A stretch of 40,953 nucleotides of DNA. It comes from an uncultured Ruminococcus sp. Its GTDB lineage: Bacteria > Bacillota > Clostridia > Oscillospirales > Ruminococcaceae. The notes below the pieces were generated by a model. That model had not been told where the DNA came from. It made no database searches and saw nothing but the letters and a program-made list of their open reading frames with translations. Made by a program: the position numbers and the translations under genes. Location of the stretch: NCBI GenBank assembly GCA_949283135.1, contig CASDRM010000031.1, positions 1-40,953 of the forward strand. The letters run 5' to 3'. Shown here one piece after another: positions 325 through 39,994 of this stretch; within the stretch, counting starts at the first letter, position 1; each line of letters starts with the position of its first letter.

Positions 325-2481
325 GTGACTGAAAAATTTGTCAGGATGCAGCTTAATATTCTGAAGCCGCTGATTGAAAACAGCTCGCTTGAGACTGCAA
401 GAATGTCTCAGGATCTGTTGGGAGAGCTTATGGCTTTGTCGAATATAACCTCGGTCAGCTACAACCGCCGTTCCTTTGAAAATTTTGAAGCCGAGTGGGC
501 GATACCGGAGGAGGACAGCAACAGCGGAGTAATTCTTTATCTCCACGGAGGAGGCTACACCTGCGGAGAGCTCGAGTATGCCAAGGGATTTGGCTCGAAG
601 CTTGCGTCGTATTTTGGTTTCAAGGTGCTGTGCTGCGCCTACCGTTTAGCTCCTGAGAACAAGTTCCCATGCGCTGTTGACGACGCTCTCGAGGCTTACA
701 AGTACCTCCTTTCGAGCGGCTTTAACCACAAGAGAATAATACTTTGTGGAGAGTCTGCCGGCGGGGGACTGTGCTACAGTCTTTGCATCAAGCTTAAAGA
801 GTTAGGACTTGAAATGCCGGCTGGAATCATTGCGATATCCCCGTGGACAGATCTTACCATGTCCGGCGAGACCTATGAGACAAACGCCAAAATAGACCCC
901 TCTATGACAAAGGAGAGGCTTGAGATGTTTGCTGAGTGCTACACTGACGACAGAAAAAAACCTCTTGCATCTCCGCTCTTTTTCGAAGGCGTCAAGTTCC
1001 CGCCGTCGATAATATTTGTCGGAGAGCAGGAAGTAATGCTTGACGACTCGAGGCGTATGCACGAAAAACTGATTAAGACAGGCTGCAAGTCAAAGCTGAT
1101 TATAGCTCCAAGGATGTGGCATGCGTATATTTTATATAATCTTAAGGAATACCGCAGTCACTATGACGAGATAGGAAAGTTTATAAACAGCGTAATACCC
1201 TCCGCCTCGCCGAGGTGGCTTAGGCTTGATAATGCGGCGAAAATTTTCCCTGCGTCTCGCCGCCGCGGCTGGTACAACATGTTCCGTCTGTCGGCGACGC
1301 TGAACGAGCCTGTATATCCAGATGTACTCCAATCGGCAGTGAACGTTACTATACGGCGGTTCCCGATGATAGCAGCGAAACTGAAAGCCGGCTTCTTCTG
1401 GTATTACCTTGAGGAAATAGACTCGCCGCCAAAGGTCAGGCGGGACGGCTATCAGCCGCTGATGCCAGACTCTTTCGCAAATGTGAAAAAATGCGCGATA
1501 AGGGTGCTGTACTACAACAACCGCATCGCGGTGGAATTCTTCCACGCCGTCACCGACGGCACTGGGGGCATGGTGTTCCTCAAAACGCTTGTCGCGGAAT
1601 ACATCTTTCAAAGGTACGGCATAAATATACCGACAGAGAAGGGAGTCTTGGACAGGCTCGCGTACCCTGAGCCGCAGGAGCTTGAGGACAGCTTCCTGAA
1701 GAATACCGGAAATGTCAGTGCAAAGAGATCTGAGGGAAAGTCGTATCACCTTTACGGCACGCCGGAGCCTGACGGCTTTTTGAATCTTACGTTAGGCGTT
1801 CTCGAGCTGGACAAGGTTTACCACATGTCAAAGGAATACGGTTTGACGATAACCGAATTTTTGTCCGCGGTAATGATTAAATCCATCTGTGAGATACAGA
1901 AGCGCAAGGTGAGAAATCAGAAAAAGCGGCTTCCCGTAAAGATTCAGATACCGGTAAATTTAAGAAAGCTGTTTGGCAGCCAGACAATGCGAAACTTTGT
2001 TATGGTGGTAAATGTAGGTGTAGACCCGAGGATGGGAGATTACAGCTTTAATGAGATTGCAAATATTGTTCATCACCAGATGGGACTATTTGTGACCAAG
2101 AAGAATATGCAATCTGTGTTTACCACAAATGTCAGGTCAGAGAGCATGCTCGCCATACGCATCGTACCGCTTTTCTTAAAAAATATCATTATGAAGGCGG
2201 TGTTTGACTCTGTGGGAGAGGCGCAGGCTTGCCTGTCGCTGTCAAATCTCGGTCTTATAGATATTCCTGCCGTAATGAAGGAGTATGTAAAGGCGTTTGA
2301 CTTCATAATAGGACCGCAGTCCGCTGCGCCGTATAATTGCGGAGTATGCTCTTACGGCAATGAGCTTAGAATCAACTTTATACGCAACTCCATCGAGCCT
2401 GAGCTCGAAAGGGAATTCTTTACAAACTTAGTCAAGCTGGGGCTGAAGGTCTCGATAGAGAGCAACCGCAGGGAGGACTGA
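325..2481 (+). CDS. Alpha/beta-hydrolase (HSL-type esterase) fused to an alcohol-acetyltransferase/condensation-like domain
   Basis: A 718-residue, two-domain protein. Residues about 1-290 are an alpha/beta hydrolase-3 (hormone-sensitive-lipase type) domain: oxyanion motif HGGG at 74-77, nucleophile Ser144 in GESAGG, probable acid at Asp240/241 and His266 in MWHAY. Residues about 300-715 resemble the AATase/condensation acyltransferase fold, with HAVTDG (407-412) matching the catalytic HxxxDG signature. The first half probably cleaves a carboxyl ester and the second moves an acyl group, so transfer between lipid or alcohol substrates is plausible; the real substrate is unknown. No signal peptide is visible, so it is probably cytoplasmic. 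The GTG start is fixed by AAGGAGGAA seven bases upstream. The DUF6320-like membrane gene starts 23 bases downstream, so the two are probably co-transcribed. Domain calls are confident; function is inference. Confidence 0.85.
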   Translation: MTEKFVRMQLNILKPLIENSSLETARMSQDLLGELMALSNITSVSYNRRSFENFEAEWAIPEEDSNSGVILYLHGGGYTCGELEYAKGFGSKLASYFGFKVLCCAYRLAPENKFPCAVDDALEAYKYLLSSGFNHKRIILCGESAGGGLCYSLCIKLKELGLEMPAGIIAISPWTDLTMSGETYETNAKIDPSMTKERLEMFAECYTDDRKKPLASPLFFEGVKFPPSIIFVGEQEVMLDDSRRMHEKLIKTGCKSKLIIAPRMWHAYILYNLKEYRSHYDEIGKFINSVIPSASPRWLRLDNAAKIFPASRRRGWYNMFRLSATLNEPVYPDVLQSAVNVTIRRFPMIAAKLKAGFFWYYLEEIDSPPKVRRDGYQPLMPDSFANVKKCAIRVLYYNNRIAVEFFHAVTDGTGGMVFLKTLVAEYIFQRYGINIPTEKGVLDRLAYPEPQELEDSFLKNTGNVSAKRSEGKSYHLYGTPEPDGFLNLTLGVLELDKVYHMSKEYGLTITEFLSAVMIKSICEIQKRKVRNQKKRLPVKIQIPVNLRKLFGSQTMRNFVMVVNVGVDPRMGDYSFNEIANIVHHQMGLFVTKKNMQSVFTTNVRSESMLAIRIVPLFLKNIIMKAVFDSVGEAQACLSLSNLGLIDIPAVMKEYVKAFDFIIGPQSAAPYNCGVCSYGNELRINFIRNSIEPELEREFFTNLVKLGLKVSIESNRRED

Positions 2482-2504
2482 CCTGATACAGAAAGGATGG
2501 GTAT

Positions 2505-3200
2505 ATGTATTGTGTAAAGTGCGGAGTAGAGCTAAGGGACAGCGAAAAGTGCTGCCCTCTTTGCGGCACTCCTGTTTTTCACCCGGATGTAAAGCAGACA
2601 AAGTCTGTGAAGCCGTATTCTGAGTTTTATCCAAACGACCATAAGTACAATGTCCGGGCGTTTATGATTGCCCTGACCCTGATCTGCGCTTTGCCTGTGC
2701 TGATCACCATGATGATAGATATCCAGATAAACGCCATGATCACATGGTCGGGGTTTGTTATCGGCGGAGTCGCAATTTTGTACGTCGCGCTGATACTGCC
2801 GTGGTGGTTCTCGCGCCCTAATCCCGTGATATTCGTTCCGTCGACCTTTGCTGCCGTAGTTCTTTATTTATGGTATATAGAGTATATGACGGGAGGTCAC
2901 TGGTTTTTGACGTTTGCATTTCCGATAACCGCCATAGCCGGTCTGATAGTCACCGCCGTGGTGACGCTGAGCAAATACCTTAGGCGGGGCTACCTGTTCA
3001 TATACGGCGGGGCAATCATCGCCGTGGGAATATATATCATGCTGATAGAGTTCTTTGTGTACATCACATATGACAGCGTGAAGTTTGTAATGTGGTCGAT
3101 TTATCCGTTTGTGGTTTGTCTGGTAATAGGAGCTTTGCTGATTATAGTCGGTGCGAACAAGCCGATGAAGGAGTCGCTCAAGAGAAAGTTCTTTATCTGA
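2505..3200 (+). CDS. Zinc-ribbon polytopic membrane protein (DUF6320-like)
   Basis: A 231-residue protein that opens with a zinc-ribbon: Cys3-x2-Cys6 and Cys17-x2-Cys20 (CVKCG...CPLCG). A short polar stretch follows to about residue 45, then about six hydrophobic segments to near residue 222, ending in a basic tail (KRKFF). This matches the DUF6320 type of membrane protein, which as I recall is often found beside the esterase/acyltransferase fusion; its function is not known. The start is supported by GAAAGGATGG just upstream. It is the second gene of a two-gene unit and is followed by a terminator. A role in supplying or moving the product of the fusion enzyme at the membrane is only a guess from position. 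Confidence 0.75.
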   Translation: MYCVKCGVELRDSEKCCPLCGTPVFHPDVKQTKSVKPYSEFYPNDHKYNVRAFMIALTLICALPVLITMMIDIQINAMITWSGFVIGGVAILYVALILPWWFSRPNPVIFVPSTFAAVVLYLWYIEYMTGGHWFLTFAFPITAIAGLIVTAVVTLSKYLRRGYLFIYGGAIIAVGIYIMLIEFFVYITYDSVKFVMWSIYPFVVCLVIGALLIIVGANKPMKESLKRKFFI

Positions 3201-3363: not shown

Positions 3364-4161
3364 TCAGCCTACATATACTCCGTATGCGCTTCCAATCTTT
3401 CCTCCGCTGAGAAGGTGAGCCTTCAAATTTTTGCGAAGGAGGGTGTCCTCGGGAAGCTCCGCTATTGGCAGAGACTCCTTTCCTGGGTATACCCAGCCCA
3501 TGTAATAGGGACTTTCCTCATCGAAGCGCTCAATGCGGAATTTGTTCTGGAAGCGGATGATGTTTGAATCCTCCGGCAGAAGCTTTTTAAGCTCGGGTGA
3601 TAAAAGCCACGAGTCGCACACTATATCGCAGTCGGCGTACTCGGGGTAAAATTCTTTGACGAAGGGATATATTGCGGGAATTTCGCCGGTCTTGAGATTG
3701 GCGTCAGAGGGAATGTGAAGGTTAAGCTTTTTAACTCCGTTGTCAATCCAGAATTCATATTCGTACTCGCCGATCCTGAATTCGTTCATTGATATTTCTC
3801 TTGGCAACCACCACGACCACACAAAAGCGTTCACACCGTGAGCAGCCTTGTGGCTGGAAATGAAGCGGGGGATAAAGCCCATGGTATCAAGGAATACCTC
3901 TTCGGAAATGCCCTTTTGGATGTACCTGCCGTAGGTATCCACAAGGCAGTCGAGCATTATCGTGAGTATCTTCATTCCGAGCGGATCATCGCCGCAGTAA
4001 TCCCAAAGCTCCTGCAAGCCCTCCTGCCATTGAGGAGGGTTTAGCAGCTTATCGGCGGACGGCTTTATGGCGCTAAAGTCAATCTCACCTGAATATTTTT
4101 CTACCGCTGAGATGACGTCGTCATCCAGCTTGAGCATACGCGCGATGTCAACGCAGGTCAT
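3364..4161 (-). CDS. Acyltransferase-domain protein (NAT_N plus GNAT-like C-terminal type)
   Basis: A 265-residue protein if started at the ATG of 4161, which follows the GH31 stop at once (TAATATG). The longer in-frame start at 4209 would overlap GH31 by 47 bases and is less likely; a GTG at 4188 is another option. The sequence fits the family with an N-terminal N-acyltransferase helical domain (about 1-125) and a GNAT-like C-terminal half (about 130-260, with WSWWLPREI and the MGWVYPG region). It has no signal peptide or membrane segment. These proteins are annotated as acyltransferases from fold; the substrate is not established. Tight coupling to the GH31 gene suggests a sugar or glycoside acyl group, but this is inference. 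Confidence 0.7.
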   Translation of the reverse strand: MTCVDIARMLKLDDDVISAVEKYSGEIDFSAIKPSADKLLNPPQWQEGLQELWDYCGDDPLGMKILTIMLDCLVDTYGRYIQKGISEEVFLDTMGFIPRFISSHKAAHGVNAFVWSWWLPREISMNEFRIGEYEYEFWIDNGVKKLNLHIPSDANLKTGEIPAIYPFVKEFYPEYADCDIVCDSWLLSPELKKLLPEDSNIIRFQNKFRIERFDEESPYYMGWVYPGKESLPIAELPEDTLLRKNLKAHLLSGGKIGSAYGVYVG

Positions 4162-4162
4162 A

Positions 4163-6139
4163 TTATTCAAATGAATTGAGCACCTCACTGCCTTTCTTAA
4201 CAAATGCAATGTACTCGCTTACCTCGGCATGCATGTTTACTGTCTGCCCGCCTGCGTACTCTTTCTTGTCCAGCACGCTTATCCACTCGCCCTCGGGGAG
4301 GTATACCTCACGGTCCGTCTGTCCCTCGTTGTAGATAGGAGCGAAGAGAATGTCGCCGCCGAACATGTACTGATCCCAAAGCTCGTAGCACTTTTTATCG
4401 TCGGGGTACTCAAAGAACATGGGTCTCATCATCGGGTAGCCCTTGTCGGCTGCCTCCTTAGCTATCTTCAGAGTGTATGGTCTCATCTTCTCACGGGTCT
4501 CGATGAGCTTCTTGAGCACAGGGTAGTTGTCGTCGCCGAAATGCCATATTTCGTTGTAGCCGCCGCCCTTTACCATAACGTCAGGCGCCTCGTCAACATA
4601 GTAGGACTGGTTGAGTCTGGTGCCGTGGAGCCTCATTATGGGGCAGAACAGACCAAACTGGAACCATCTTACGATAAGCTCGCGGAAGGTCTTTGATTCG
4701 GTATCTCCGAAGAGGAAGCCGCCGATGTCGCTGTTCCACCACGGGATTCCGCACATAGCCATCGAAAGTCCGCTTGAAATGCTCTGCCTGAGAGCAAAGA
4801 AGCTTGACATGATGTCGCCGTTCCAAACGCATGCGCCTACTCGCTGGCTTCCGGTGTAGGCGGCTCTTGTGAGGGAGATGATGTCGGTCTCGCCCTCGCT
4901 CTTGAGTCCGTCGTAGAAGATCTTATTATAATAGTATGGATAGATGAGCGCAGTCTGGGCGCCGTTTCCGGCGTACATTTTAAGATTGGCGAACTGCTGT
5001 GGGTGAACCTCAGGCTCTGCTTCGTCGAGCCAGAAATTCTTTATGCCGTAGCTGTAGTAGTTTTTCTTCACCTTGTCCCAGTAGAACTTGGCGGTTTCCG
5101 GGTTGGTCGGGTCGATGAAGGTTATCATGCCGAAGAAATCGAAGGTGGGGTATTGTCCGTTTTCAGTTCTTACAAGCATGTTGCGGTCGTTCATTTCACG
5201 CCAGTTTTCGCTCTTGGGGCTGATTGTCGGCCAGACGGATACAACAGGCTCGATGTTCATTTCCTTGAGCTCGTCGCACATGGCCTTCGGGTCGGGCCAG
5301 TACTTGGGGTCAAACTTGAGGTCGCCCTGCTCTGTCCAGTGGAAGAAGTCGATGACGATAGCGTCTATCGGTATGCCGCGGCGCTTGTATTCTCTTGCGA
5401 CTTTCAGGAGTATGTCCTGTGACTCATAGCGGCACTTGCACTGCCAGAAGCCGGCAGCCCACTTGGGCATCATTGGGCTGTAGCCTGTAAGATCGGCGTA
5501 GGTTGTCATGACGTCCTTTGGGGTGTCTCCGACAAATACTATGAAGTCCGCCTGATAAGCGCTGTCCGCCACCCACATGGTGTGGTTGAGGGTGGTTTCG
5601 CATCTGCCGGGAGCGGGGTTGTTCCAAAGGAAGCCGTAGCCGAGTGAGGAATAGTAAACGGGGATTACAGACTTCGTGTTGTAGTGAACGAGCTCAGTCG
5701 ATGTTCCCTTACGGTCAAAGGCGTCCTCCTGCTCCTGACCGAGTCCGTAGATGTGCTCACCGTCGTTGGCGTTGAAGGCAAATCTGATGCGGTAGTTGTC
5801 TCCCTCTGTGTGGAGGTATCTCATGCAGTAATCGCCGTAATTTTTGGTGCAGAGTATCTGCTTGCCCTTGCGCATAAAGCAAAGCTCTCCACCCCAGTCG
5901 TTGGTGGACACTCTTACCGAGATATCGCCGTTGGTGAGGGTAGCGTGCTTGTCGTCTCCCGAAAGCTCCGGCTTAGAGTTGTCCTTGGGGTCTAAAAGAG
6001 TCCACTTTTCGTCAGAAAGCTTAGCGTTCTTTGAAGCTCTGACACGGATGCAGTTGAGTCCGTAAGGCTCAATGAGCATGGTTTCATCCCTGCGCTCAAA
6101 GAGGATGCTTGAGTTATTCATAAATGTGATCTTGCCCAT
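4163..6139 (-). CDS. Glycoside hydrolase family 31 (alpha-xylosidase/alpha-glucosidase type)
   Basis: A 658-residue retaining alpha-glycosidase. The N-terminal beta-sandwich is followed by a TIM barrel from about residue 225. The catalytic nucleophile is Asp372 in WLDEAEPE and the likely acid/base is Asp442 in WNGDI; WWNSDIGGF (467-475) is another GH31 signature. The WLDxxEPE form is common in alpha-xylosidase-like members, so release of xylose or glucose from plant or dietary oligosaccharides is likely. There is no signal peptide, which implies cytoplasmic action on imported sugars. The start at 6139 is chosen because AAAAGGAGA lies just upstream; the frame stays open to 6223 without a ribosome site. 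It is the first gene of a two-gene minus-strand unit. Exact substrate cannot be read from sequence. Confidence 0.92.
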   Translation of the reverse strand: MGKITFMNNSSILFERRDETMLIEPYGLNCIRVRASKNAKLSDEKWTLLDPKDNSKPELSGDDKHATLTNGDISVRVSTNDWGGELCFMRKGKQILCTKNYGDYCMRYLHTEGDNYRIRFAFNANDGEHIYGLGQEQEDAFDRKGTSTELVHYNTKSVIPVYYSSLGYGFLWNNPAPGRCETTLNHTMWVADSAYQADFIVFVGDTPKDVMTTYADLTGYSPMMPKWAAGFWQCKCRYESQDILLKVAREYKRRGIPIDAIVIDFFHWTEQGDLKFDPKYWPDPKAMCDELKEMNIEPVVSVWPTISPKSENWREMNDRNMLVRTENGQYPTFDFFGMITFIDPTNPETAKFYWDKVKKNYYSYGIKNFWLDEAEPEVHPQQFANLKMYAGNGAQTALIYPYYYNKIFYDGLKSEGETDIISLTRAAYTGSQRVGACVWNGDIMSSFFALRQSISSGLSMAMCGIPWWNSDIGGFLFGDTESKTFRELIVRWFQFGLFCPIMRLHGTRLNQSYYVDEAPDVMVKGGGYNEIWHFGDDNYPVLKKLIETREKMRPYTLKIAKEAADKGYPMMRPMFFEYPDDKKCYELWDQYMFGGDILFAPIYNEGQTDREVYLPEGEWISVLDKKEYAGGQTVNMHAEVSEYIAFVKKGSEVLNSFE

Positions 6140-6326
6140 AGCGAAGTCTCCTTTTTGTTTGTAATTATACTCCCATAATAACCGATACAAGCACTCATAA
6201 CAATGATTTTTAACAACCTGCAAATTGATTTATTATAACCGGACTCAAAACGCCCGATTTGGCATTTTATTCATGTCAAGCCCTTTTTTATTTCTGAAAA
6301 TTGTGTGAAAATTTAGGGCGGTTCAC

Positions 6327-6355
6327 TTGACATCTTGACGGATTGTGTGTATCAT
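6327..6355 (+). promoter_or_regulatory. Strong promoter of pckG
   Basis: TTGACA (6327-6332) and TATCAT (6350-6355) are spaced by 17 bases. Transcription would start near 6362, leaving a leader of about 118 bases before the pckG ATG. The rest of the 340-base gap between GH31 and pckG (6140-6479) is AT-rich on its left side. I found no convincing -35/-10 pair for the minus-strand GH31 gene there, although an ATTATA (TATAAT on minus) occurs at 6164-6169. Confidence 0.75.
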
Positions 6356-6479
6356 TGTAATCGAGGAAAAATTGGATTTTGCGCTATGCCGATTTTCCTT
6401 GGGAGACTGTTCCGCTGGTTCTGCCGCCGCGAAGGACTCCCATAGAAGACGAAAAACTTTTGAAAAGGAGATAAATATA

Positions 6480-8267
6480 ATGGCTTCACTTACCAAGAAC
6501 CCAAACGTAAATAAGTGGGTCGACGAGATGATCGCGCTCACCAAGCCGGACAAGGTTGTCTGGATTGACGGAAGCGAGGAGCAGCTCAACGTTCTTCGTG
6601 AGGAGGCTTGCTCCACCGGCGAGATGATCAAGCTCAACCCGGAGAAGCTTCCCGGATGCCTTTATCACAGAACTCTTCCCAACGACGTTGCCCGTGTTGA
6701 GGACAGGACCTTCATCTGCACCTCTAAGAAGGAAGACGCGGGACCGACCAACAACTGGTGCGATCCTAAGGAGATGTACGCAAAGCTTACCCCGATGTAC
6801 GACGGCGTCATGAAGGGAAGAACCATGTATGTTATTCCTTACTCCATGGGACCTATCGGTTCTCCTCTGGCAAAGGTCGGCGTTGAGGTTACTGACTCGA
6901 TATATGTAGTACTTAACATGGCTATCATGACCAGAATGGGCGAGCAGGCGTTTGAAAACCTCGGAGACACCTCAAACGACTTTGTAAGAGGACTTCACTC
7001 CAAGGCAAATGTTGATCCCGAGAACAGATACATCGTTCAGTTCCCCGAGGACAACACTATCTGGTCGATAAACTCCGCATACGGCGGAAATGTTCTTCTC
7101 GGCAAGAAGTGCTTCGCTCTCAGAATCGCTTCCTATCAGGGCAAGAATGAGGGCTGGATGGCTGAGCACATGCTCATCCTCGGAATAGAGAAGCCCAACG
7201 GCGAGGTCAAGTATGTATGCGCGGCGTTCCCCTCTGCATGTGGAAAGACCAACCTGGCTATGCTCATTCCTCCGGAGGTTTACACCAAGAAGGGCTACAA
7301 GGTTTGGACTGTCGGCGATGATATCGCTTGGCTCAAGCCGGGCGAGGACGGCAGACTTTACGCTATTAACCCGGAGAACGGCTTCTTCGGCGTTGCTCCC
7401 GGAACAAACGAAAAGTCGAACTATAATGCTCTTGCCTCCACCAGAAAGAACACTATCTTCACTAATGTTGCCATCAACAATGATGATATGACTGTTTGGT
7501 GGGAGAAGCTTGACAAGAATCCTCCTGTAAACGCTACCGAGTGGAAGGGCACAAAGGTAAACGGTCCCGAGTACATTGCGGCAGGCAACAAGCTCGCTCA
7601 CCCCAACTCCAGATTCACCGCTCCCGCCGTCAACTGCCCCTGCATCTCTCCTGAGTTCAACAACCCCAAGGGCGTTCCGGTATCCGCGATCATCTTCGGC
7701 GGAAGACGCGCTAAGACCGCTCCGCTGGTATACCAGTCCTTCAACTGGCAGCACGGTACATTCGTAGGTTCTATCATGGCTTCCGAGACAACCGCAGCCG
7801 CTGCCGGCGCTGTAGGCGTAGTAAGAAGAGATCCTATGGCTATGCTTCCGTTCTGCGGCTACAACATGGGCGACTACTGGGCACACTGGCTCGAGATGGG
7901 CAAGGTTCTTGGCGACAAGGCTCCTAAGATCTTCAATGTAAACTGGTTCAGAACCGATGATGAGGGCAACTTCATCTGGCCCGGCTTCGGCGACAACATG
8001 AGAGTCCTCGATTGGATCATCAAGCGTTGCGAGGATGCGGTTGACGCTGTTGAGACTCCTATCGGATATGAGCCCAAGCCCGAGGATATCAACGTCGAGG
8101 GTCTTGAGGATGTTACAACTGAAACTGTCAAGGGACTTCTCTCTGTTGACAAGGATCTCTGGAAGGAAGATGCTAAGGGAATCCATGAGTTCTACGCTAA
8201 GTTCGGCGACAAGCTTCCCAAGGAGCTTGAGTTTGAGCTTGAGGGTCTTGAGGCTCGTCTCGGCTAA
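6480..8267 (+). CDS. pckG: Phosphoenolpyruvate carboxykinase (GTP)
   Basis: A 595-residue GTP-type PEP carboxykinase, normal length for the family. It interconverts oxaloacetate plus GTP with PEP, CO2 and GDP in the cytoplasm. Diagnostic motifs are the P-loop PSACGKTN (251-258), the kinase-2/metal motif TVGDDIAW (277-284) and the arginine-rich FGGRRAKT (406-413). In fibre-degrading anaerobes the enzyme commonly runs toward CO2 fixation on the way to succinate; direction here is inference. The ATG at 6480 is chosen because AAAAGGAGA is 7-8 bases upstream; the open frame to 6345 lacks such a site. Codon use is strongly biased to AAG, CTC and GGC compared with neighbours, as expected for a very highly expressed gene. 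Confidence 0.97.
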   Translation: MASLTKNPNVNKWVDEMIALTKPDKVVWIDGSEEQLNVLREEACSTGEMIKLNPEKLPGCLYHRTLPNDVARVEDRTFICTSKKEDAGPTNNWCDPKEMYAKLTPMYDGVMKGRTMYVIPYSMGPIGSPLAKVGVEVTDSIYVVLNMAIMTRMGEQAFENLGDTSNDFVRGLHSKANVDPENRYIVQFPEDNTIWSINSAYGGNVLLGKKCFALRIASYQGKNEGWMAEHMLILGIEKPNGEVKYVCAAFPSACGKTNLAMLIPPEVYTKKGYKVWTVGDDIAWLKPGEDGRLYAINPENGFFGVAPGTNEKSNYNALASTRKNTIFTNVAINNDDMTVWWEKLDKNPPVNATEWKGTKVNGPEYIAAGNKLAHPNSRFTAPAVNCPCISPEFNNPKGVPVSAIIFGGRRAKTAPLVYQSFNWQHGTFVGSIMASETTAAAAGAVGVVRRDPMAMLPFCGYNMGDYWAHWLEMGKVLGDKAPKIFNVNWFRTDDEGNFIWPGFGDNMRVLDWIIKRCEDAVDAVETPIGYEPKPEDINVEGLEDVTTETVKGLLSVDKDLWKEDAKGIHEFYAKFGDKLPKELEFELEGLEARLG

Positions 8268-15496: not shown

Positions 15497-16285
15497 TTAC
15501 TTTTCTTGGCTTGTTTTTTTCTTTTCAGCCTGAGCTTGCTTTCTGTATGCCAACGGCGACATACCGGTCACAGTTTTGAACTGCCTGCAAAAATGTTCTA
15601 CGTTCTGATAGCCGCAAAGATTCGCTATCTTCTGCGAGGTAAAGTTAGTGTTTGTCAGCTGCATTTTTGCGAGGTCAATTCTCTTCTCGACCACATCCTG
15701 CATACAGGAAACTCCAAACTGCTTTTTGTAGATGTTCTGAAGGTATCCAGCACTGACATGGAGCTTACTTGCCATATAGCCCACGGTCCACTGGTAATAG
15801 GGATGAAGCTGAATCTCATACCGCAGGTCAATCAGCGCGCGCTGCGGCTCGGTCATGTTGTTATCGTTTATCGACTCCTTCATCTTTAAAAACATCATTC
15901 TCATTATCATGGATATGGACTGCTGGGAGTAGTGGAATTTATAGTAGTTTTCTATGGACAGAAGCTCAAAAAGCCGTTCCATTTCGTATGGAGAGCGCAG
16001 TAACACCGGCGTTTCCATGGGAATGTTTTCATCAAGGATGAAACTCTCATCGGTGTGAAATCTGACATAGTCGTTTATATATGGTCCGTTGTTCGCCTGA
16101 TAATATGCAAACGAATGCGGCGGATACAAAATAGCGCTGTTAGGCGGTGCTATGACATCTCCTGACGGCAGATGAAACAACGCTGAGGTCTTTACAAACA
16201 AAAGAAGCCAAAAATCACTTTTCCAGCCATAAACAAAATCACTTTCGTGTGTGGCGTTAAGTTGAACCAGTTCTATATCAATCAT
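15497..16285 (-). CDS. AraC-family transcriptional regulator
   Basis: A 262-residue regulator. Residues about 1-140 form a cupin-like sensing domain (PPNSAILYPPHSFAYYQ), and residues about 160-255 carry the two helix-turn-helix motifs of the AraC family: MASKLHVSAGYLQNIYKKQFG and the signature IANLCGYQNVEHFCRQFKTVTGMSPLAYR. Such regulators usually sense a sugar and activate nearby carbohydrate genes. Here the gene is alone on its strand, divergent from the cohesin-like gene at 16609; control of that cluster is possible but unproven. The ATG follows GGAGGTG. Confidence 0.92.
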   Translation of the reverse strand: MIDIELVQLNATHESDFVYGWKSDFWLLLFVKTSALFHLPSGDVIAPPNSAILYPPHSFAYYQANNGPYINDYVRFHTDESFILDENIPMETPVLLRSPYEMERLFELLSIENYYKFHYSQQSISMIMRMMFLKMKESINDNNMTEPQRALIDLRYEIQLHPYYQWTVGYMASKLHVSAGYLQNIYKKQFGVSCMQDVVEKRIDLAKMQLTNTNFTSQKIANLCGYQNVEHFCRQFKTVTGMSPLAYRKQAQAEKKKTSQEK

Positions 16286-16440: not shown

Positions 16441-16480
16441 TTGAAATATGCGTACAAATATGGTACAATATCAGTATAAT
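16441..16480 (+). promoter_or_regulatory. Promoter of the cohesin-like/SPFH cluster
   Basis: TTGAAA (16441-16446) and TACAAT (16464-16469) have a 17-base spacer; a second TATAAT lies at 16475-16480. The leader to 16609 is about 130 bases and holds a two-part hairpin (TCCGGA 16532-16537 with TTCGGA 16568-16573; CTTTCG 16539-16544 with CGAAAG 16557-16562). A GGGAGG at 16485-16490 precedes no convincing gene. The rest of 16286-16440 is AT-rich and empty. Confidence 0.65.
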
Positions 16481-16608: not shown

Positions 16609-17613
16609 ATGATGAGAAGGTTGACGATGTCGATTCTGACCGTAATTATCGTCGCAGTGATGAGTGTGCCCTTGTTCGCGTTTGGCTCGACCAAGGTCGG
16701 AACATTATCAATGGAGCAGGCGGACGGCAGCGCCTCCGGAGGTCTTGTCACTATTCAGCTTTCTGTCGAGTCTAATCCTGGACTTAACAGGCTTGCGGTT
16801 CAGCTCATATATGACTCAAATGCAATGACGTTTGCTGGAGTAAGCAACTCCGGCGTGTTTTCAAGTTGCGACAGCACACCTTCGACAGGAGTTGTAAATC
16901 TGAGCTTTTCGACCGGGTTTGATACCACCCAGAGCGGTAAAATTGCGGATATAGTTTTCTTTGTCACAAATCCATTAGCTCAGAACTCGCAAATTACCGC
17001 CATACCGCAAGAAGCATATAACAGCTCAGGGGTTGCTGTAACCGTATACGGTTCGTCATTGACAGGAATAAATCTCTCAGATGAAGAAAATATAAATGTC
17101 AACGAGGGAAATAGCGATGGTGATAGCGACAGCGAAGACATTGTTTTGGATGACGGAGATGCTGGCGATATAGTTCTTGATGAGGACGAAGACGAGGAGA
17201 TAGTTGTTGAGGACGAGGAGGATGCCACTACAGTCACGACTACCGAGGCAACTACTACACGCGCGACAACTACCACTAAGACTACTACAACAAAGGCTAC
17301 AACCACTACGGCTGAGCCTACGACGGCGACAACTACTCCGGCAACTACCACCGTTACAACACAGGTCACAACACCCGCTGTCACCACTACGCCTGAGACT
17401 ACCGCAATGCCTCAGACCACAGAGACGTCAGCCTCTGTGACCGCCGGCTCAGATGATTCGTCAGCGGCAAGTACGGACAGCTCACCGAAGGCGACAGGGG
17501 GAACTGTGGCGGCGGCGATTATTATTTTGGTTCTCACGGTGGCAGTGGCAGTGGGAATAGAGCTTATCAGGAGAAAAGGCGGCATAGAATATATTAAAAA
17601 GTTTTTAAAATAG
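16609..17613 (+). CDS. Cell-surface cohesin-like domain protein with acidic and Thr-rich linkers
   Basis: A 334-residue exported protein. Order: signal peptide (1-26); a single cohesin-like beta-sandwich (about 30-155; GGLVTIQLSVES...NRLAVQLIYDSNAMTFAGV is the cohesin opening); acidic stretch (158-206) with DIVLD repeats; Thr-rich linker (207-290) as in ruminococcal surface proteins; transmembrane helix (about 299-317); a short basic tail. Cohesins bind dockerin-bearing enzymes, so this may be an anchoring protein, but the fold is also used for other surface functions and no dockerin occurs in the window. SPKATGG before the helix is not a standard sortase motif. The ATG at 16609 follows AAGGAAGAAGGG; the frame is open to 16576 without a better site. 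The SPFH gene follows after 16 bases. Confidence 0.7.
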   Translation: MMRRLTMSILTVIIVAVMSVPLFAFGSTKVGTLSMEQADGSASGGLVTIQLSVESNPGLNRLAVQLIYDSNAMTFAGVSNSGVFSSCDSTPSTGVVNLSFSTGFDTTQSGKIADIVFFVTNPLAQNSQITAIPQEAYNSSGVAVTVYGSSLTGINLSDEENINVNEGNSDGDSDSEDIVLDDGDAGDIVLDEDEDEEIVVEDEEDATTVTTTEATTTRATTTTKTTTTKATTTTAEPTTATTTPATTTVTTQVTTPAVTTTPETTAMPQTTETSASVTAGSDDSSAASTDSSPKATGGTVAAAIIILVLTVAVAVGIELIRRKGGIEYIKKFLK

Positions 17614-17629
17614 TTTAAGGAGATAAATC

Positions 17630-18526
17630 ATGAAAAAGTTATTATCAAAAAGGGTTGTACTCCCTGTTCTCGGAGTAATTATCGTAATAATTATACTTGC
17701 GAACAGCCTTACAATCGTTCAGGCTGGACATACCGGAGTTGTTCTTACATTGGGAAGAGTTGAGGAAAACGTTTTGCAGGAGGGACTTCACGCGAAGATA
17801 CCTTTTATTCAGAGCGTAGCTATGATCGACAACAGAATCACCAAGCTTGAGGTCTCTACCGAGGCGTTCTCTAAGGATTTGCAGACTGTACAAACTACTA
17901 TTGCGATAAATTACAGGGTAGACACCAGCAAGTCGTTCAGCATCTATAAGAACATCGGAAGGGATTATGAGTCTATATTGGTAGTGCCTGCGGTAAACGA
18001 GGTGCTTAAGGCGATAGCGGCGGAATATACAGCAGAGGAGAGCGTAACAAACAGAACTCTCATTTCCGAGGGACTCATAGTCGGACTTAACGAAAAGCTC
18101 AACGATATAGGGCTTTATGTAACCGATGTAAATATCATCAATTTTGACTTCTCGGACGCCTATATAACCGCCATAGAGGAAAAGCAGGTAGCTCAGCAGC
18201 AGCTTCTTAAGGCTGAGACAGAGAAGCAGACTCAGATAACCAACGCAGAGGCAGAGGCTGAGGCGCTCAAAATAAGGGCTGAAGCCGAGGCGGAGGCAAA
18301 TAGAATACTTGCCGAGTCAATCACCGATACACTTGTTGAGTATAACAAGATTGAAAAGTGGAATGGACAGCTTCCTCAGGTCACCGGCGGAGCCTCTTCG
18401 ATACTCGATGTAAGCTCTTTCCTTGAGTCTGGTAACGCAGGCTCTGATACAACTTACAGTAGTTATGTCCCTGAGGACAATACTCCTGACGAACAGGAGC
18501 AAGCTAATGACGGCATGGCAGAGTAA
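17630..18526 (+). CDS. SPFH/band-7 (prohibitin-like) membrane protein
   Basis: A 298-residue protein with one N-terminal transmembrane helix (about 10-28), a band-7 domain (about 30-195; VQAGHTGVVLTLGRV and EGLHAKIPFIQSV are typical) and an Ala/Glu-rich coiled coil (about 185-235), ending in an acidic tail. SPFH proteins form large ring oligomers in the membrane and organise proteases or membrane domains. The length and layout are close to prohibitin-type members rather than to HflK/HflC pairs. Start by AAGGAG seven bases upstream. It lies 16 bases after the cohesin-like gene and 33 bases before a lipoprotein gene, so co-transcription is likely. Confidence 0.9.
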   Translation: MKKLLSKRVVLPVLGVIIVIIILANSLTIVQAGHTGVVLTLGRVEENVLQEGLHAKIPFIQSVAMIDNRITKLEVSTEAFSKDLQTVQTTIAINYRVDTSKSFSIYKNIGRDYESILVVPAVNEVLKAIAAEYTAEESVTNRTLISEGLIVGLNEKLNDIGLYVTDVNIINFDFSDAYITAIEEKQVAQQQLLKAETEKQTQITNAEAEAEALKIRAEAEAEANRILAESITDTLVEYNKIEKWNGQLPQVTGGASSILDVSSFLESGNAGSDTTYSSYVPEDNTPDEQEQANDGMAE

Positions 18527-18559: not shown

Positions 18560-19324
18560 ATGACAAAGTTTTATAAAGCAGGAATCAGGATCGCTGTTGC
18601 GGCAGTAGCGGCAGTGTGTGTTATCTCGTTTGCGGGCTGCGAGCTCGGAAAGACAGAGACTGCCTACACCTTGTACCGGAGCGCCGCCGACGCAATAGAG
18701 AAGGCGGACGGCTATGAGGTCAACTGCGACATGAACATGAGCTTTGAGCTTTTAGGCGAGGAGATGTCTACTGATGTAGACATGAACATCAAGCAGAGCG
18801 GAAATGTCTCGAAAATAGTCACTGCTTTTGACGGCGACGAAATTGTTACGACGACGACCGAGGACGCCGTGTATGTTGAGTATCTTGACGCTAAAACAAA
18901 GTACACGCTATCGGATGAGCTTAAGGAAAGCATGAACGCTGTTGACTCAAGCTTTTCTGATATACCGATGCTCACCGAGGAAATGCTTCAGGAACTGGAA
19001 ATAGCTGATAACGGAGACGGCACGAGGTCGATCACTGTCCAGCTTGACAACGAAAACGCCGCTAAAATGCTCGGGAGCTTCATGGGCGAGGATCAGTCCG
19101 TAAGCCTTGAGGGAGTGACGCTGCGCATGGACTTCGATGAGGACGATATGCTTTGCAGTATGCATCTTGAGTGCGGAATAGTCATGAACGTCTCTGGAAT
19201 AGAGATAACCGGCAACGAGACCGTTGATTATGAATTTGTAAATATGGGCGAGACGCCGGACGTGTCGCTGAATTACCCCGAGGAGGAATATACCGACGGA
19301 GGGGAATATGCCGGGACTTATTGA
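18560..19324 (+). CDS. Lipoprotein of unknown function (DUF6612-like), copy 1
   Basis: A 254-residue lipoprotein: signal with lipobox FAGC, lipidated Cys27. The mature part opens with YTLYRSAADAIEKADGYEVNCDMNMSFEL and consists of predicted beta strands with many acidic residues, resembling the LolA/LppX-like lipoprotein folds seen in DUF6612 proteins. I do not recognise a catalytic motif. Start by AGGGAAA. It is related along its whole length to the lipoprotein at 19533 (shared YxxYxxAxxxxxxAxGxExxC, LTEEMLxE and CSMHLE/KSMKLE-type blocks), so the two are diverged tandem duplicates. It ends the likely transcript begun at 16441. Confidence 0.75.
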   Translation: MTKFYKAGIRIAVAAVAAVCVISFAGCELGKTETAYTLYRSAADAIEKADGYEVNCDMNMSFELLGEEMSTDVDMNIKQSGNVSKIVTAFDGDEIVTTTTEDAVYVEYLDAKTKYTLSDELKESMNAVDSSFSDIPMLTEEMLQELEIADNGDGTRSITVQLDNENAAKMLGSFMGEDQSVSLEGVTLRMDFDEDDMLCSMHLECGIVMNVSGIEITGNETVDYEFVNMGETPDVSLNYPEEEYTDGGEYAGTY

Positions 19325-19532
19325 CCTCACGGCAGTAAGGACTAACAGGACTTAAGATGTAAATCCGGGCGCGCTCGGTAAATTGGAATTTATAGTTTAG
19401 CAAAGGTCAGACAGCTTCCCCACGATCTTACAAAATTGCGCTGCGGATTTTTCATATAGATTCTTTTCTCGGCGATTAAAATTATGCTCCGTGCGGTTTA
19501 GACGGAGCAGAAAATTATGGGGTGTAGATTTG

Positions 19533-20294
19533 ATGATTAGGAAAAATATTGTAAAAAGGGTAGCTGCATTTTTAGCAGCAGCGGTAATGGCTCTGTCGCT
19601 TTGCGGCTGTGAGCTTTTCGCTCGCAAGACCGCGTACGAAATTTACAGCGAGGCTGTAAATACAATGAATGAGGCTGGCGGCTTTGAGGCGGACTGCAAG
19701 ATATCGGTCGCGATGAGCGTGACCAGCGTGGACATGTCCATTGATTTCAATATGAACATGCAGATGAACGGTGAGAACGCCAAGATTTACATCGATTATG
19801 TGGACGATACCGAAATGGTAACTTCGTTGTTTGACGGGTATACCTATCTTGAAATCGGCGACGAAATAAAGTTCAAGGTCAAAAATGAGGACGACGAGTT
19901 CATGGCGGATGAAGGCATTCTTCCGACGCTGACAGAGGAGATGCTCGAGGAGGTCGAGCTGGTTGAAAACGAGGACGGCTCAACGTCGTTTACGGTGGAA
20001 ATCAGCTATGAAGACGCGGAAAGCCTGCTTAACCTTACCGAAGAAGGAATGGAAGTAGTTCCAGACAGCATTATGCTTTCAATGACGTTTGATGAAAACG
20101 ATGTCATCAAGTCCATGAAGCTTGAATTTGATGTCACCATGGAGGAAGAGGGCGTTGCCTACACGGGCACCGAGAGCGTAGAATGCGAGTTTATCAACGT
20201 CGGTACAGCTCCCGAAATAAAGCTCAACTATTCCGAGGACGAGTACATAGATTTAAGCGGTCTTTCGGATGATATTTTGAACGACCTCGCTTGA
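19533..20294 (+). CDS. Lipoprotein of unknown function (DUF6612-like), copy 2
   Basis: A 253-residue lipoprotein with signal and lipobox LCGC (Cys26), then the same architecture as the protein at 18560: YEIYSEAVNTMNEAGGFEADCKISVAMSV at the start, a central TLTEEMLEEVELVENEDG block matching MLTEEMLQELEIADNGDG of copy 1, and a similar C-terminal strand pattern. Strongly acidic. The ATG at 19533 follows GGGGTG; an in-frame GTG at 19491 would add 14 residues before the signal peptide and is unlikely. A 208-base spacer separates the two copies, so it may have its own promoter. Function unknown. Confidence 0.75.
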   Translation: MIRKNIVKRVAAFLAAAVMALSLCGCELFARKTAYEIYSEAVNTMNEAGGFEADCKISVAMSVTSVDMSIDFNMNMQMNGENAKIYIDYVDDTEMVTSLFDGYTYLEIGDEIKFKVKNEDDEFMADEGILPTLTEEMLEEVELVENEDGSTSFTVEISYEDAESLLNLTEEGMEVVPDSIMLSMTFDENDVIKSMKLEFDVTMEEEGVAYTGTESVECEFINVGTAPEIKLNYSEDEYIDLSGLSDDILNDLA

Positions 20295-24224: not shown

Positions 24225-25076
24225 TCAGTCAGAATCGGTTTTCAAAATTTCCTGCGCAACCATAAATGAGTTGCGGTATTCGCTCGGGCTCATGCCCTCG
24301 CTGTCATGAAACCTGCGGTTGAAGCTTCGTATGCTGGAAAAACCGGATTCAAAGGCAATTTCGGTAATGGATTTTTTTGAGTTGACCAGCAGTTTTTTTG
24401 CCACGGAAATTCTCTTTTTTGAAATGTATGAGTTGAGCGAGGTTTTAAAGTTGCGAGAGAACACAGTTGAGACATAGCTTGGAACGATGTTCAGAGCCTT
24501 GGCTATTTTCTCAAGCGAGAGATCCTGAGAAATATTGTTGTCGATGTACAAAAGCAGCTGCCTGCATATCTCAAAGTTATTGGAGCGCTCCTTGAATCTC
24601 TCGAACTCTCCACCGGAGTAAGCCGGCATGATACCGGATATAAGAACGGTGAGCATACCCTTTATGACGGTTTTGCCTATCGAGTAGTTGTGTGAGAAGT
24701 CGGTAAGGTACTTTATCTGATCCTTTGCGAAACTCGGGCAGGTTTTGCTGTGCATTCTGACAAACGGTACGCTGTTGCTCTCAAAGAACGCCTTAAAGTC
24801 AGATATAAACCCGGTGTTAAATATAAAAACGCATATTGAGGCGTTTTTATCTGGGGAATAAAAACGATGTATTACATGCGGACAGATAAGAGCGCCGTCT
24901 CCGGGCTCAAGCTCAAGCTGTGTGTCGTCGATGCGCGCAGACACATGTCCGCGCTCCACTATGACAAGCTCAACCTGGCTGTGCAGGTGAAAATCCTGCC
25001 ATATATTTTCGGCGGCGTAGGCTATTACGCCGTAGGTAACAGTTCCCTCGCTCCAGTCCTCATATCTGAAATTCAA
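24225..25076 (-). CDS. AraC-family transcriptional regulator with cupin sensor
   Basis: A 283-residue regulator. Residues about 20-100 form a cupin (FHLHSQVELVIVERGHVSARIDD...GDGALICPHVIHRF), typical of sugar-sensing AraC proteins; residues about 180-275 hold two helix-turn-helix motifs (IAKALNIVPSYVSTVFSRNFK and the signature IAFESGFSSIRSFNRRFHDSEGMSPSEYR). A TTG start at 25076 is proposed because GGGGGTGATC stands just before it; the ATG at 25103 has no ribosome site. It converges on a sugar-type binding lipoprotein, which is a possible target. Confidence 0.9.
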   Translation of the reverse strand: MNFRYEDWSEGTVTYGVIAYAAENIWQDFHLHSQVELVIVERGHVSARIDDTQLELEPGDGALICPHVIHRFYSPDKNASICVFIFNTGFISDFKAFFESNSVPFVRMHSKTCPSFAKDQIKYLTDFSHNYSIGKTVIKGMLTVLISGIMPAYSGGEFERFKERSNNFEICRQLLLYIDNNISQDLSLEKIAKALNIVPSYVSTVFSRNFKTSLNSYISKKRISVAKKLLVNSKKSITEIAFESGFSSIRSFNRRFHDSEGMSPSEYRNSFMVAQEILKTDSD

Positions 25077-25254
25077 TAGATCACCCCCATGCGATTTTTC
25101 CATATCACGGTTATTATATCATATGTAACTGTGCTTTTTCAATAGGATGAAATCCAATGCCTATGCTTATATAAGACATTAAAAGCAAAAGTCTGTAATT
25201 GCCTAATGAGGCACAGAAGCGTAAAAATTGACAGGCAAATTAGAATATGCAGTC

Positions 25255-38624: not shown

Positions 38625-39956
38625 TCAGTCGAATGAGGTCATCGCTATCGAGTAGAAGCTCGGCTTGAGAGAGAGGTCTCTGTCGATAATGAGCGCCGCG
38701 TTTCTTCTGAGCTTGGGAGTGGAGTTGAGCCATGAGTTCTCATCGTCTGTTCCCCAGAATACCACAGAGTCAAGCACGCCGCGGTCTGCAAACTCGAGGA
38801 AGAGGTCAAATAGCTCGGCATACTTCACTGCCTGAGCCTCGAACTCCTCATCTGACCATGTCTTAAAGCTGCCGTCGGCATCTGCGCCTACGAACATGTT
38901 CATGTCGAGCTCGGTGATCTGGATTCTGAAGTTACCGGCGTAATCAGGGAAGCACTCGTCGTAGATCTCGGCAAGACCTGCGATCTTTTCGAGGTTCCTT
39001 CTGTAGGTGTCGATGTTGCAGTCAACGCTGATGTGGGACTGGAAGCCGACGCCGTCGATTCTTACGCCCTTGCGGAGCATTCTCTCGACCATGTCATACA
39101 TAGCCTGGGTCTTGGAATCCTGCCACTCCATGTTGAAGTCGTTGATGACGAGTACCAAGTCATCTCCGCCGGCGGCTCTTGCGGCGTTGAAGGCTATCTC
39201 AACATAGTCATCATAGTAACCGTTGCCGTCCAGATCCCCGATGATATCAGCCCAGTAGGAGTCATCGGCGATGCGTCTTATGGAATCTGCGTTAAGAACC
39301 TCGTTGCAGACGTCCCATACCTTGATGTCGTCCTTATACCTTGTTACTACATCGGTAATATAGGTAGTGATTCTTTCCTGAAGCTGTTCGCTGGTAGCCA
39401 AAGCGCCTGCCTCGTTGCACTCAGCCAAGGATCTTGTGTCGTTGGGGTCTGCCTTGAACCACCACTGAGGAACCTGTGAGTGCCACAGCAGAGTATGTCC
39501 TCTGAGGGTAGCGCCGTTGAGCTTGCCGAAAGCGACGAAATCGTCGGCGTATTCGAAGTTGTAAACGCCTTCGGACGGGTTGACGCAGTCAGGCTTGAGC
39601 TCGTTGCCGAGGGTATACATGTTGTAGTGCTTGAGAAGTCCCTTTGCAATCGGGTCCTCAAGGTTGGTTATCTGGTTGGAGGTGAATGAAGCGCCGACAG
39701 ATATCCTTCCCTCAAAGTATTTGCAGAGCGAGGGAACGTCGTAGTCGGCCACATAGTGCTCTCCGGACTCCTCCAAAGCGGTGAGCTCATCCTTGGAGTA
39801 TGTAAGATTAGGGTCGGTAAGACCTTCTACAAATTCAGGGTCTACCTGCTGCAGGGCATCGTCTCCGTTTGAATCTGGGTCGGTCTGACCGTTTTCGCAG
39901 GAGCAGAAGCTTATAAGCATCGCTCCGGCAAGCAGGAACGCCAAAAATCTTTTCAT
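38625..39956 (-). CDS. Endo-1,4-beta-xylanase, glycoside hydrolase family 10, lipoprotein
   Basis: A 443-residue exported enzyme. The signal ends in ISFCSCEN, with Cys20 the likely lipidated residue (FCSC is a loose lipobox). An acidic linker (about 21-70) precedes a GH10 barrel (about 75-440): HTLLWHSQVPQWW (154-166), acid/base Glu219 in VWDVCNEVL, nucleophile Glu349 in QITELDM, and VVFWGTDDENSW near the end. It cuts the xylan backbone. No carbohydrate-binding or dockerin domain is seen, so it is probably held on the cell by its lipid. The ATG at 39956 is preferred although AAAGGA is about 12 bases away; a TTG at 39965 is too close to it. Own promoter and terminator. Confidence 0.95.
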   Translation of the reverse strand: MKRFLAFLLAGAMLISFCSCENGQTDPDSNGDDALQQVDPEFVEGLTDPNLTYSKDELTALEESGEHYVADYDVPSLCKYFEGRISVGASFTSNQITNLEDPIAKGLLKHYNMYTLGNELKPDCVNPSEGVYNFEYADDFVAFGKLNGATLRGHTLLWHSQVPQWWFKADPNDTRSLAECNEAGALATSEQLQERITTYITDVVTRYKDDIKVWDVCNEVLNADSIRRIADDSYWADIIGDLDGNGYYDDYVEIAFNAARAAGGDDLVLVINDFNMEWQDSKTQAMYDMVERMLRKGVRIDGVGFQSHISVDCNIDTYRRNLEKIAGLAEIYDECFPDYAGNFRIQITELDMNMFVGADADGSFKTWSDEEFEAQAVKYAELFDLFLEFADRGVLDSVVFWGTDDENSWLNSTPKLRRNAALIIDRDLSLKPSFYSIAMTSFD

Positions 39957-39994
39957 AAGTTTCAATATCCTTTCGGTGAAAAATTTTCACACAC

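What the first reader, a model, noticed from the sequence alone, without database searches (positions are those of the whole stretch)
16609..17613. Single cohesin-like domain on a membrane-anchored stalk
One cohesin-like domain, acidic DIVLD repeats, an 80-residue Thr-rich stalk and a transmembrane helix make a possible cell-surface anchoring point for dockerin-bearing enzymes. Unlike known sortase-attached anchors it seems held by a helix, and no dockerin is present in the local glycosidases.
Basis: partly seen in the sequence, partly recalled or inferred. Interest (0 to 1): 0.55.

Follow-up and report, generated by a model that had tools for sequence, protein, structure and literature searches.

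The report
Stalked cohesin protein paired with prohibitin
This gut bacterium carries a membrane-held, stalk-mounted cohesin domain, a module usually used to dock enzymes, yet no matching docking partner was found in its genome; the gene instead sits beside a gene for a prohibitin-like membrane protein in most of its relatives, which hints at a different job for a familiar module.

Summary
In detail: 16609-17613 encodes a signal-peptide-like start, one cohesin-family domain, an acidic DIVLD stretch, a 73-residue stalk (56% Thr), a hydrophobic helix and a basic tail. Cohesin homology is weak for this sequence alone but clear for its family: 21 of 21 aligned orthologue domains match Pfam Cohesin, and their profile finds solved cohesins (best E 3.6e-7). 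The proposed role, anchoring dockerin enzymes, is not supported: two dockerin profiles find none in this 99.85%-complete genome, and 16 of 29 genus genomes carrying the gene have none. The gene belongs to a conserved neighbourhood: divergent AraC regulator, cohesin gene, prohibitin-type SPFH gene, lipoprotein gene. SPFH follows directly in 26 of 28 genomes with both genes; two genomes lack regulator, cohesin gene and SPFH gene alike. The juxtamembrane-helix-tail stretch is the best-conserved part, and its profile matches strongly only this protein, so it is probably not a shared sorting signal. Most likely: an outward-facing stalked receptor or adhesin associated at the membrane with a bacterial prohibitin assembly. 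That association is inferred, not shown; a shared operon without contact is the main rival.

The parts
16609..17613 (+). stalked cohesin protein (334 aa)
16609..16683 (+). signal-peptide-like N terminus (residues 1-25)
   Evidence: read from sequence; no predictor run
16696..17082 (+). cohesin-family domain (residues 30-158)
   Evidence: weak fold support
17083..17226 (+). acidic DIVLD linker (50% D/E)
17227..17490 (+). Thr-rich stalk (residues 207-279, 56% Thr) and Ser/Asp linker (280-294)
17491..17610 (+). juxtamembrane residues, hydrophobic helix and basic tail (residues 295-334); near-invariant A295, T299, T310, E318
17630..18526 (+). prohibitin-type SPFH (Band 7) protein; 16 bases lie between the cohesin gene's stop and its ATG
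18560..19324 (+). lipoprotein-like gene, third of the conserved order; only sub-cut-off Pfam matches (DUF1307 here, DUF6612 in a relative)
   Evidence: lipobox read from sequence
19491..20294 (+). second gene related to 18560-19324
15497..16285 (-). divergent AraC-family regulator
16441..16469 (+). promoter-like site (TTGAAA-17-TACAAT); consensus match only
   Evidence: 11 found in the region, 7.6 expected by chance

Best explanation
A single-pass surface protein: exported by a signal peptide, held in the cytoplasmic membrane by its C-terminal helix, with an acidic and Thr-rich stalk that carries one cohesin-family head outward. It lies in a likely operon with a prohibitin-type SPFH protein and a lipoprotein, beside a divergent AraC regulator. 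It does not dock dockerin enzymes of its own cell, since none was found in the genome. Its conserved juxtamembrane and helix region most likely associates with an outward-facing prohibitin assembly, which would cluster or protect it, while the fast-evolving head binds some other surface, secreted, host or community ligand. Shown: domain family, architecture, gene order, joint absence from two genomes, conservation of the C-terminal region, absence of detectable dockerins. Inferred: topology, operon and regulation, physical association with the prohibitin-type protein, and the ligand.
For: Cohesin family. No dockerin in G000. SPFH directly downstream in 26 of the 28 genus genomes that have both genes: 25, plus G017, where the stalk and helix end of the cohesin gene lies beside the SPFH gene at a contig edge. 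Cohesin gene, SPFH gene and AraC orthologue are all without a match in the same two of 31 genomes, G026 and G028, both listed as 99% complete; Fisher p 0.0065 for cohesin against SPFH, not corrected for kinship. A one-gene tree of 20 genomes sets these two apart. Best PDB match of the SPFH protein is prohibitin, E 2.4e-30. The stretch 295-323 has the largest identity excess over shuffles (0.318 against 0.246 for the cohesin domain), and its profile matches strongly only this protein, in 29 of 31 genomes.
Against: No interaction was tested. The helix core alone (299-316) exceeds shuffles by 0.263, barely more than the cohesin domain's 0.246, so much of the excess comes from residues around the helix. 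G016 keeps the cohesin gene next to the lipoprotein gene without an SPFH match, and G027 and G030 have both genes apart. AraC linkage (26 of 27 loci with upstream sequence) is at least as tight, so co-regulation alone could explain the order. The pairing was not seen outside the genus. The head is 18-31% identical to the window copy in all rows but one, while the SPFH protein is 72-84% identical in its aligned part outside the closest relative, which speaks against a conserved head-SPFH contact.
Confidence: 0.4

Rival explanations
1. The gene order reflects only a shared operon: the cohesin protein and the prohibitin-type protein are made together, perhaps under the AraC regulator, but never touch.
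For: AraC linkage is as tight as SPFH linkage (26 of 27 loci with upstream sequence); G016 has no SPFH match; G027 and G030 keep both genes apart; the helix core is conserved barely above the head.
Against: The conserved, protein-specific C-terminal stretch with mid-helix Thr and terminal Glu suggests some membrane partner.
Confidence: 0.3
2. One reading: an anchoring protein for dockerin-bearing enzymes, working with own dockerins in some species and with foreign dockerins, or as a relic, in this one.
For: Cohesin family membership; 13 of 29 carrier genomes have dockerins; in 11 of 29 loci a GH10 gene lies beyond the AraC gene; helix-held single cohesins have been proposed as anchors.
Against: No dockerin found in this genome by two profiles; 16 of 29 carriers lack them, 15 of these 16 listed as at least 95% complete; no association over 31 genomes (Fisher p 1.0).
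Confidence: 0.15
3. An adhesin in which the cohesin fold itself binds a host, diet or cell-surface ligand, as proposed for the cohesin-bearing TMEM132 proteins of animals.
For: Fast-evolving head on a long Thr-rich stalk; precedent for a cohesin homologue in animal membrane proteins with a predicted adhesion role (PMC6030884, abstract).
Against: No ligand known; nothing seen in the neighbourhood points to a host ligand.
Confidence: 0.1
4. The C terminus is a sortase-type sorting signal with an unusual motif, so that the protein ends up bound to the wall.
For: Sortases in 31 of 31 genus genomes, two in tandem in this one. A-x-x-x-T is conserved before the helix, followed by a short basic tail. 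The window copy and its closest relative read SPKATGG there, near but not equal to a recalled SPxTG-type sortase motif. A weak resemblance occurs in one other ORF of this genome (E 0.005).
Against: No LPxTG in the 21 aligned tails, and the Pro occurs only in the two closest sequences; strong profile matches are confined to this protein, one per genome; T310 and E318 lie within and behind the helix, where a sorting signal need not be conserved (recalled).
Confidence: 0.05

Closest known systems
Single-cohesin proteins with a C-terminal transmembrane helix in H. luporum and C. cibarium (PMC11557425, section 14 read)
   Same: One cohesin and a C-terminal helix; proposed as non-SLH anchoring scaffoldins with unclear partners
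   Different: Those genomes encode cellulosome scaffoldins; here no dockerin was found, and a prohibitin-type neighbour is conserved
Cohesin-like module of C. perfringens NagJ (2jh2, 2o4e, 2ozn)
   Same: Best sequence-profile match among solved structures (E 3.6e-7)
   Different: There the module belongs to a family 84 glycoside hydrolase (entry title); here it heads a helix-held stalk without an enzyme
Limousia mucinolysome anchor cSca5 (PMC12997984, passages)
   Same: A cohesin protein at the surface of a gut bacterium
   Different: cSca5 has an LPxTG sortase signal and its genome has dockerin partners
Prohibitins and HflK/HflC (for the neighbour gene)
   Same: SPFH protein with an N-terminal helix; best PDB match prohibitin. 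HflK and HflC have large periplasmic SPFH domains (PMC12005517, passages)
   Different: I found no cohesin partner described for them in searches
B. subtilis SPFH protein YdjI with the membrane proteins YdjG/H (PMC8581546, abstract)
   Same: Precedent for an SPFH protein acting with integral membrane partner proteins
   Different: No cohesin; the role there is to bring PspA to the membrane

Membership tests
Cohesin (PF00963) | Sequence-profile membership | tested here: met
   21 of 21 orthologue domains match at E<=0.1 (best 4.5e-11); the window copy alone stays under the cut-off (16.9 against 24.1 bits); profile of 21 hits solved cohesins, best 3.6e-7
Cohesin (PF00963) | Cohesin beta-sandwich fold | tested here: inconclusive
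   Model pLDDT 56 from two sequences; Foldseek led by cohesin entries but E>=0.036; VIA Z 6.6 to 6kgc, 113 aligned, rmsd 3.5, with non-cohesin chains at Z up to 5.6
Cohesin (PF00963) | Binds a dockerin | not testable with these tools
   Needs a binding test
Anchoring scaffoldin of a cellulosome | Dockerin partner encoded in the same genome | tested here: not met
   0 matches in G000 with PF00404 at E<=1 and with a genus-specific profile at E<=0.1; genome 99.85% complete
Anchoring scaffoldin of a cellulosome | Surface attachment element | tested here: met
   C-terminal hydrophobic helix with basic tail, present in the aligned orthologues; attachment itself not tested
Sortase-anchored surface protein | C-terminal sorting signal shared with other proteins of the genome | tested here: not met
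   Profile of the C terminus: one strong match per genome, this gene, in 29 of 31 genomes (E<=3.7e-12); all other matches E>=7.7e-4
Prohibitin / SPFH (neighbour gene) | Band_7 domain with an N-terminal helix | tested here: met
   PF01145 E 3.1e-31; prohibitin E 2.4e-30 in the PDB; helix read from sequence

The most novel reading that the evidence does not exclude
A dedicated cohesin-prohibitin surface system: a bacterial prohibitin assembly on the outer face of the membrane organises stalked cohesin receptors through a conserved helix contact, with the cohesin fold serving without any dockerin encoded by the cell.
Probability: 0.3. Interest if true: 0.72.

Novelty: new variant of a known kind. 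Interest (0 to 1): 0.5.

Why it matters
Cohesins are understood mostly through dockerins. A cohesin protein kept across a genus, in many genomes without detectable dockerins and next to a prohibitin-type gene, makes two questions testable together: what a cohesin fold binds when there is no dockerin, and what outward-facing bacterial prohibitins organise.

Tried and rejected
Single-sequence searches gave no cohesin for the whole protein: Pfam, NCBIfam, phmmer of the domain against the PDB; the PF00963 search of the G000 genome also gave none. The family profile resolved this.

Foldseek and VIA lists are led by cohesins but are not decisive: no Foldseek E under 0.036, and VIA Z values of 5 to 7 that also occur for unrelated chains.

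A shared sorting signal was considered because every genus genome has sortases. I rejected it after the C-terminal profile search. The best non-self match in G000 (E 0.005) is an ORF with a membrane tail beside a glycosidase-like ORF, the latter name recalled.

The pairing was sought outside the genus. Of 247 family genomes (a few from the genus itself), 46 match the cohesin profile at E<=1e-4 and 79 the SPFH protein at E<=1e-20; comparing the listed contig positions by eye shows no adjacent pair outside the genus. Among ORFs called in eight fetched loci with SPFH genes from other genera (L072, L079-L085), the cohesin profile found none at E<=1e-3. The 72%-identical SPFH gene of G101 has a different 193-residue ORF upstream. 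More divergent cohesins could be missed.

Literature: searches. The lists shown were partial for 51 (15 of 47), 52 (10 of 145), 58 (8 of 16), 70 (10 of 110) and 84 (8 of 73), and complete for 71 (1) and 82 (2); one returned nothing. None listed describes a cohesin-prohibitin pair. PMC7241084 holds the words cohesin, prohibitin and SPFH, and PMC7456326 cohesin and prohibitin; I saw only their listings.

Dropped rows: of the 25 loci, alignments A1 and A2 hold 21 (the window stands for L001). Left out were L020 (run of N), L023 (frame interrupted in the stalk), L024 and L025 (other architectures). L002 and L026 appear to be the same contig of one relative (equal contig length), so they are not independent. 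The gene caller missed genes in L099 and L102; one search recovered them. The tree uses one gene and 20 of 31 genomes; 22% of bootstrap trees would allow a single change for the two genomes without the module.

Full report
What is there. The window is contig C31 of a 1.63 Mb genome in 127 contigs, 99.85% complete. The closest named relative found is a metagenome-assembled genome of Candidatus Faeciplasma pullistercoris (L026, 86% identical in the best segment, residues 1-334 matched; NCBI places the genus in Oscillospiraceae). From the ATG at 16609 it encodes 334 residues: signal-peptide-like start, cohesin-like domain, acidic linker with two DIVLD, a 73-residue stalk that is 56% Thr, a hydrophobic helix and a basic tail. 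Signal peptide and helix are read from the sequence; no topology predictor was run.

Is it a cohesin? For the single sequence the evidence is thin: no cohesin hit for the whole protein, none by phmmer of the domain against the PDB, and the domain alone scores PF00963 at E 0.0073, under the cut-off. Orthologues settle it. A single-sequence search found matches in 23 of 31 genomes of the genus at E<=0.001, and the domain profile in 28 of 31 at E<=0.01. All 21 aligned domains match PF00963 (best 4.5e-11), and their profile matches solved cohesins, NagJ of C. perfringens first (3.6e-7), then cellulosomal cohesins. The predicted model is poor (pLDDT 56); cohesins lead its structural matches, without decisive scores.

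Does it serve dockerins? With the Pfam model, 13 of 31 genus genomes have dockerins at E<=0.01, and G000 has none at E<=1. A profile built from 15 dockerins of the genus finds them in 14 of 31 genomes, again none in G000, at E<=0.1; it matches its own source sequences by construction. Counting G017 (see below), 29 genomes carry the cohesin gene: 13 have a dockerin and 16 do not; 15 of those 16 are listed as at least 95% complete. Of the 2 genomes without the gene, one has a dockerin. So the gene is kept regardless of dockerins. It is also the only cohesin the profile finds in G000. Foreign dockerins remain possible.

The neighbourhood. Directly downstream, with 16 bases between stop and ATG, lies an SPFH gene (PF01145 E 3.1e-31) whose best solved relatives are prohibitins (2.4e-30). 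In 29 genus loci examined, the SPFH gene follows the cohesin gene in 25. In a 26th, G017, the contig begins inside the cohesin gene, whose stalk and helix end lies just before the SPFH gene. G016 has no SPFH match; G027 and G030 have both genes but apart. An AraC-family gene diverges upstream in 26 of 27 loci with upstream sequence; the exception, G004, has its orthologue on another contig. A lipoprotein-like gene follows in 22 of 29; in G016 it follows the cohesin gene directly. In 11 of 29 a GH10 gene lies beyond the AraC gene (family). Flanks further out differ between groups.

Joint absence. The SPFH protein has no match at E<=1e-20 in G016, G026 and G028, the cohesin protein's C terminus no strong match in G026 and G028, and the AraC orthologue none in G017, G026 and G028, where only paralogues of about 30% or nothing match (in G017 it may lie in an assembly gap). 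Cohesin against SPFH gives Fisher p 0.0065, without correction for kinship. In a tree of one sortase protein for 20 of the 31 genomes, G026 and G028 group with different carriers, which favours two losses, but 22% of bootstrap trees allow a single change.

The C-terminal stretch. Compared with shuffles within each row, the stretch from just before the helix to the tail (295-323) has the largest excess identity (0.318), above the cohesin domain (0.246), signal peptide (0.178), stalk (0.176) and acidic linker (0.148). The helix core alone (299-316) gives 0.263, barely above the cohesin domain, so residues at its edges matter most. A295 is invariant in 21 rows; T299 and T310 are kept in 20, and E318 in 19. 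A profile of this stretch finds one strong match per genome, this gene, in 29 of 31 genomes (E<=3.7e-12); all others have E>=7.7e-4. A sorting signal shared by many proteins is therefore unlikely, although sortases are present in all 31 genomes. A specific membrane partner is a natural reading.

How it may work. The SPFH protein has a basic N terminus followed by a helix, so by analogy to HflK and HflC, whose SPFH domains are periplasmic (PMC12005517, passages), its SPFH domain should face outward. The cohesin protein would also face outward on its stalk. I infer that the helices associate, so that a prohibitin assembly clusters or protects the stalked protein; an SPFH protein that works with integral membrane partners is known in B. 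subtilis (PMC8581546, abstract). The head evolves fast (18-31% identical to the window copy in all rows but one) while the SPFH protein is conserved (72-84% in its aligned part outside the closest relative), so the head probably meets a variable ligand rather than the SPFH domain. Co-regulation without contact is the main rival.

Compared with what is known. Single cohesins with a C-terminal helix have been reported in H. luporum and C. cibarium as possible anchors with unclear partners (PMC11557425, section 14 read), so helix attachment is not new. Limousia cSca5 is a sortase-attached counterpart (PMC12997984, passages). A cohesin homologue in animal TMEM132 proteins has a predicted adhesion role (PMC6030884, abstract). 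I found no paper on a cohesin-prohibitin pair in searches, of which 52 and 84 showed only part of their lists; the library holds open-licence papers only. Verdict: a cohesin-family protein in a gene context not seen outside its genus here, a new variant of a known kind.

Noticed in passing
L111 (G000:C14), about 4080-7773: Two tandem sortase genes next to a SpoIID-like protein (name recalled) whose linker has the same acidic (VVLDE, IVIDDDEE) and Thr-rich style as the cohesin protein; a similar set lies in L113 of G009.
   Followed up: partly
L109 (G004:C71); L086 (G119:C18): Proteins with a cohesin domain and a dockerin in one reading frame (L086 by Pfam; L109 by profile matches), a different architecture from the window gene.
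   Followed up: no
L107 (G014) and L117 (G015): The cohesin gene's reading frame is interrupted in or near the repetitive stalk in these two genomes; this may be real or an assembly error in low-complexity sequence.
   Followed up: no
window 38625-39965 (-): GH10 gene; in 11 of 29 related loci a GH10 gene lies beside the AraC-cohesin pair instead.
   Followed up: partly
L142 (G000:C32) 1664-2506 (-): ORF with a C-terminal membrane tail weakly resembling the cohesin protein's C terminus (E 0.005), beside a glycosidase-like ORF (name recalled).
   Followed up: partly
window 24225-25103 (-): Second gene that clusters with the AraC-family regulator at 15497-16285.
   Followed up: no
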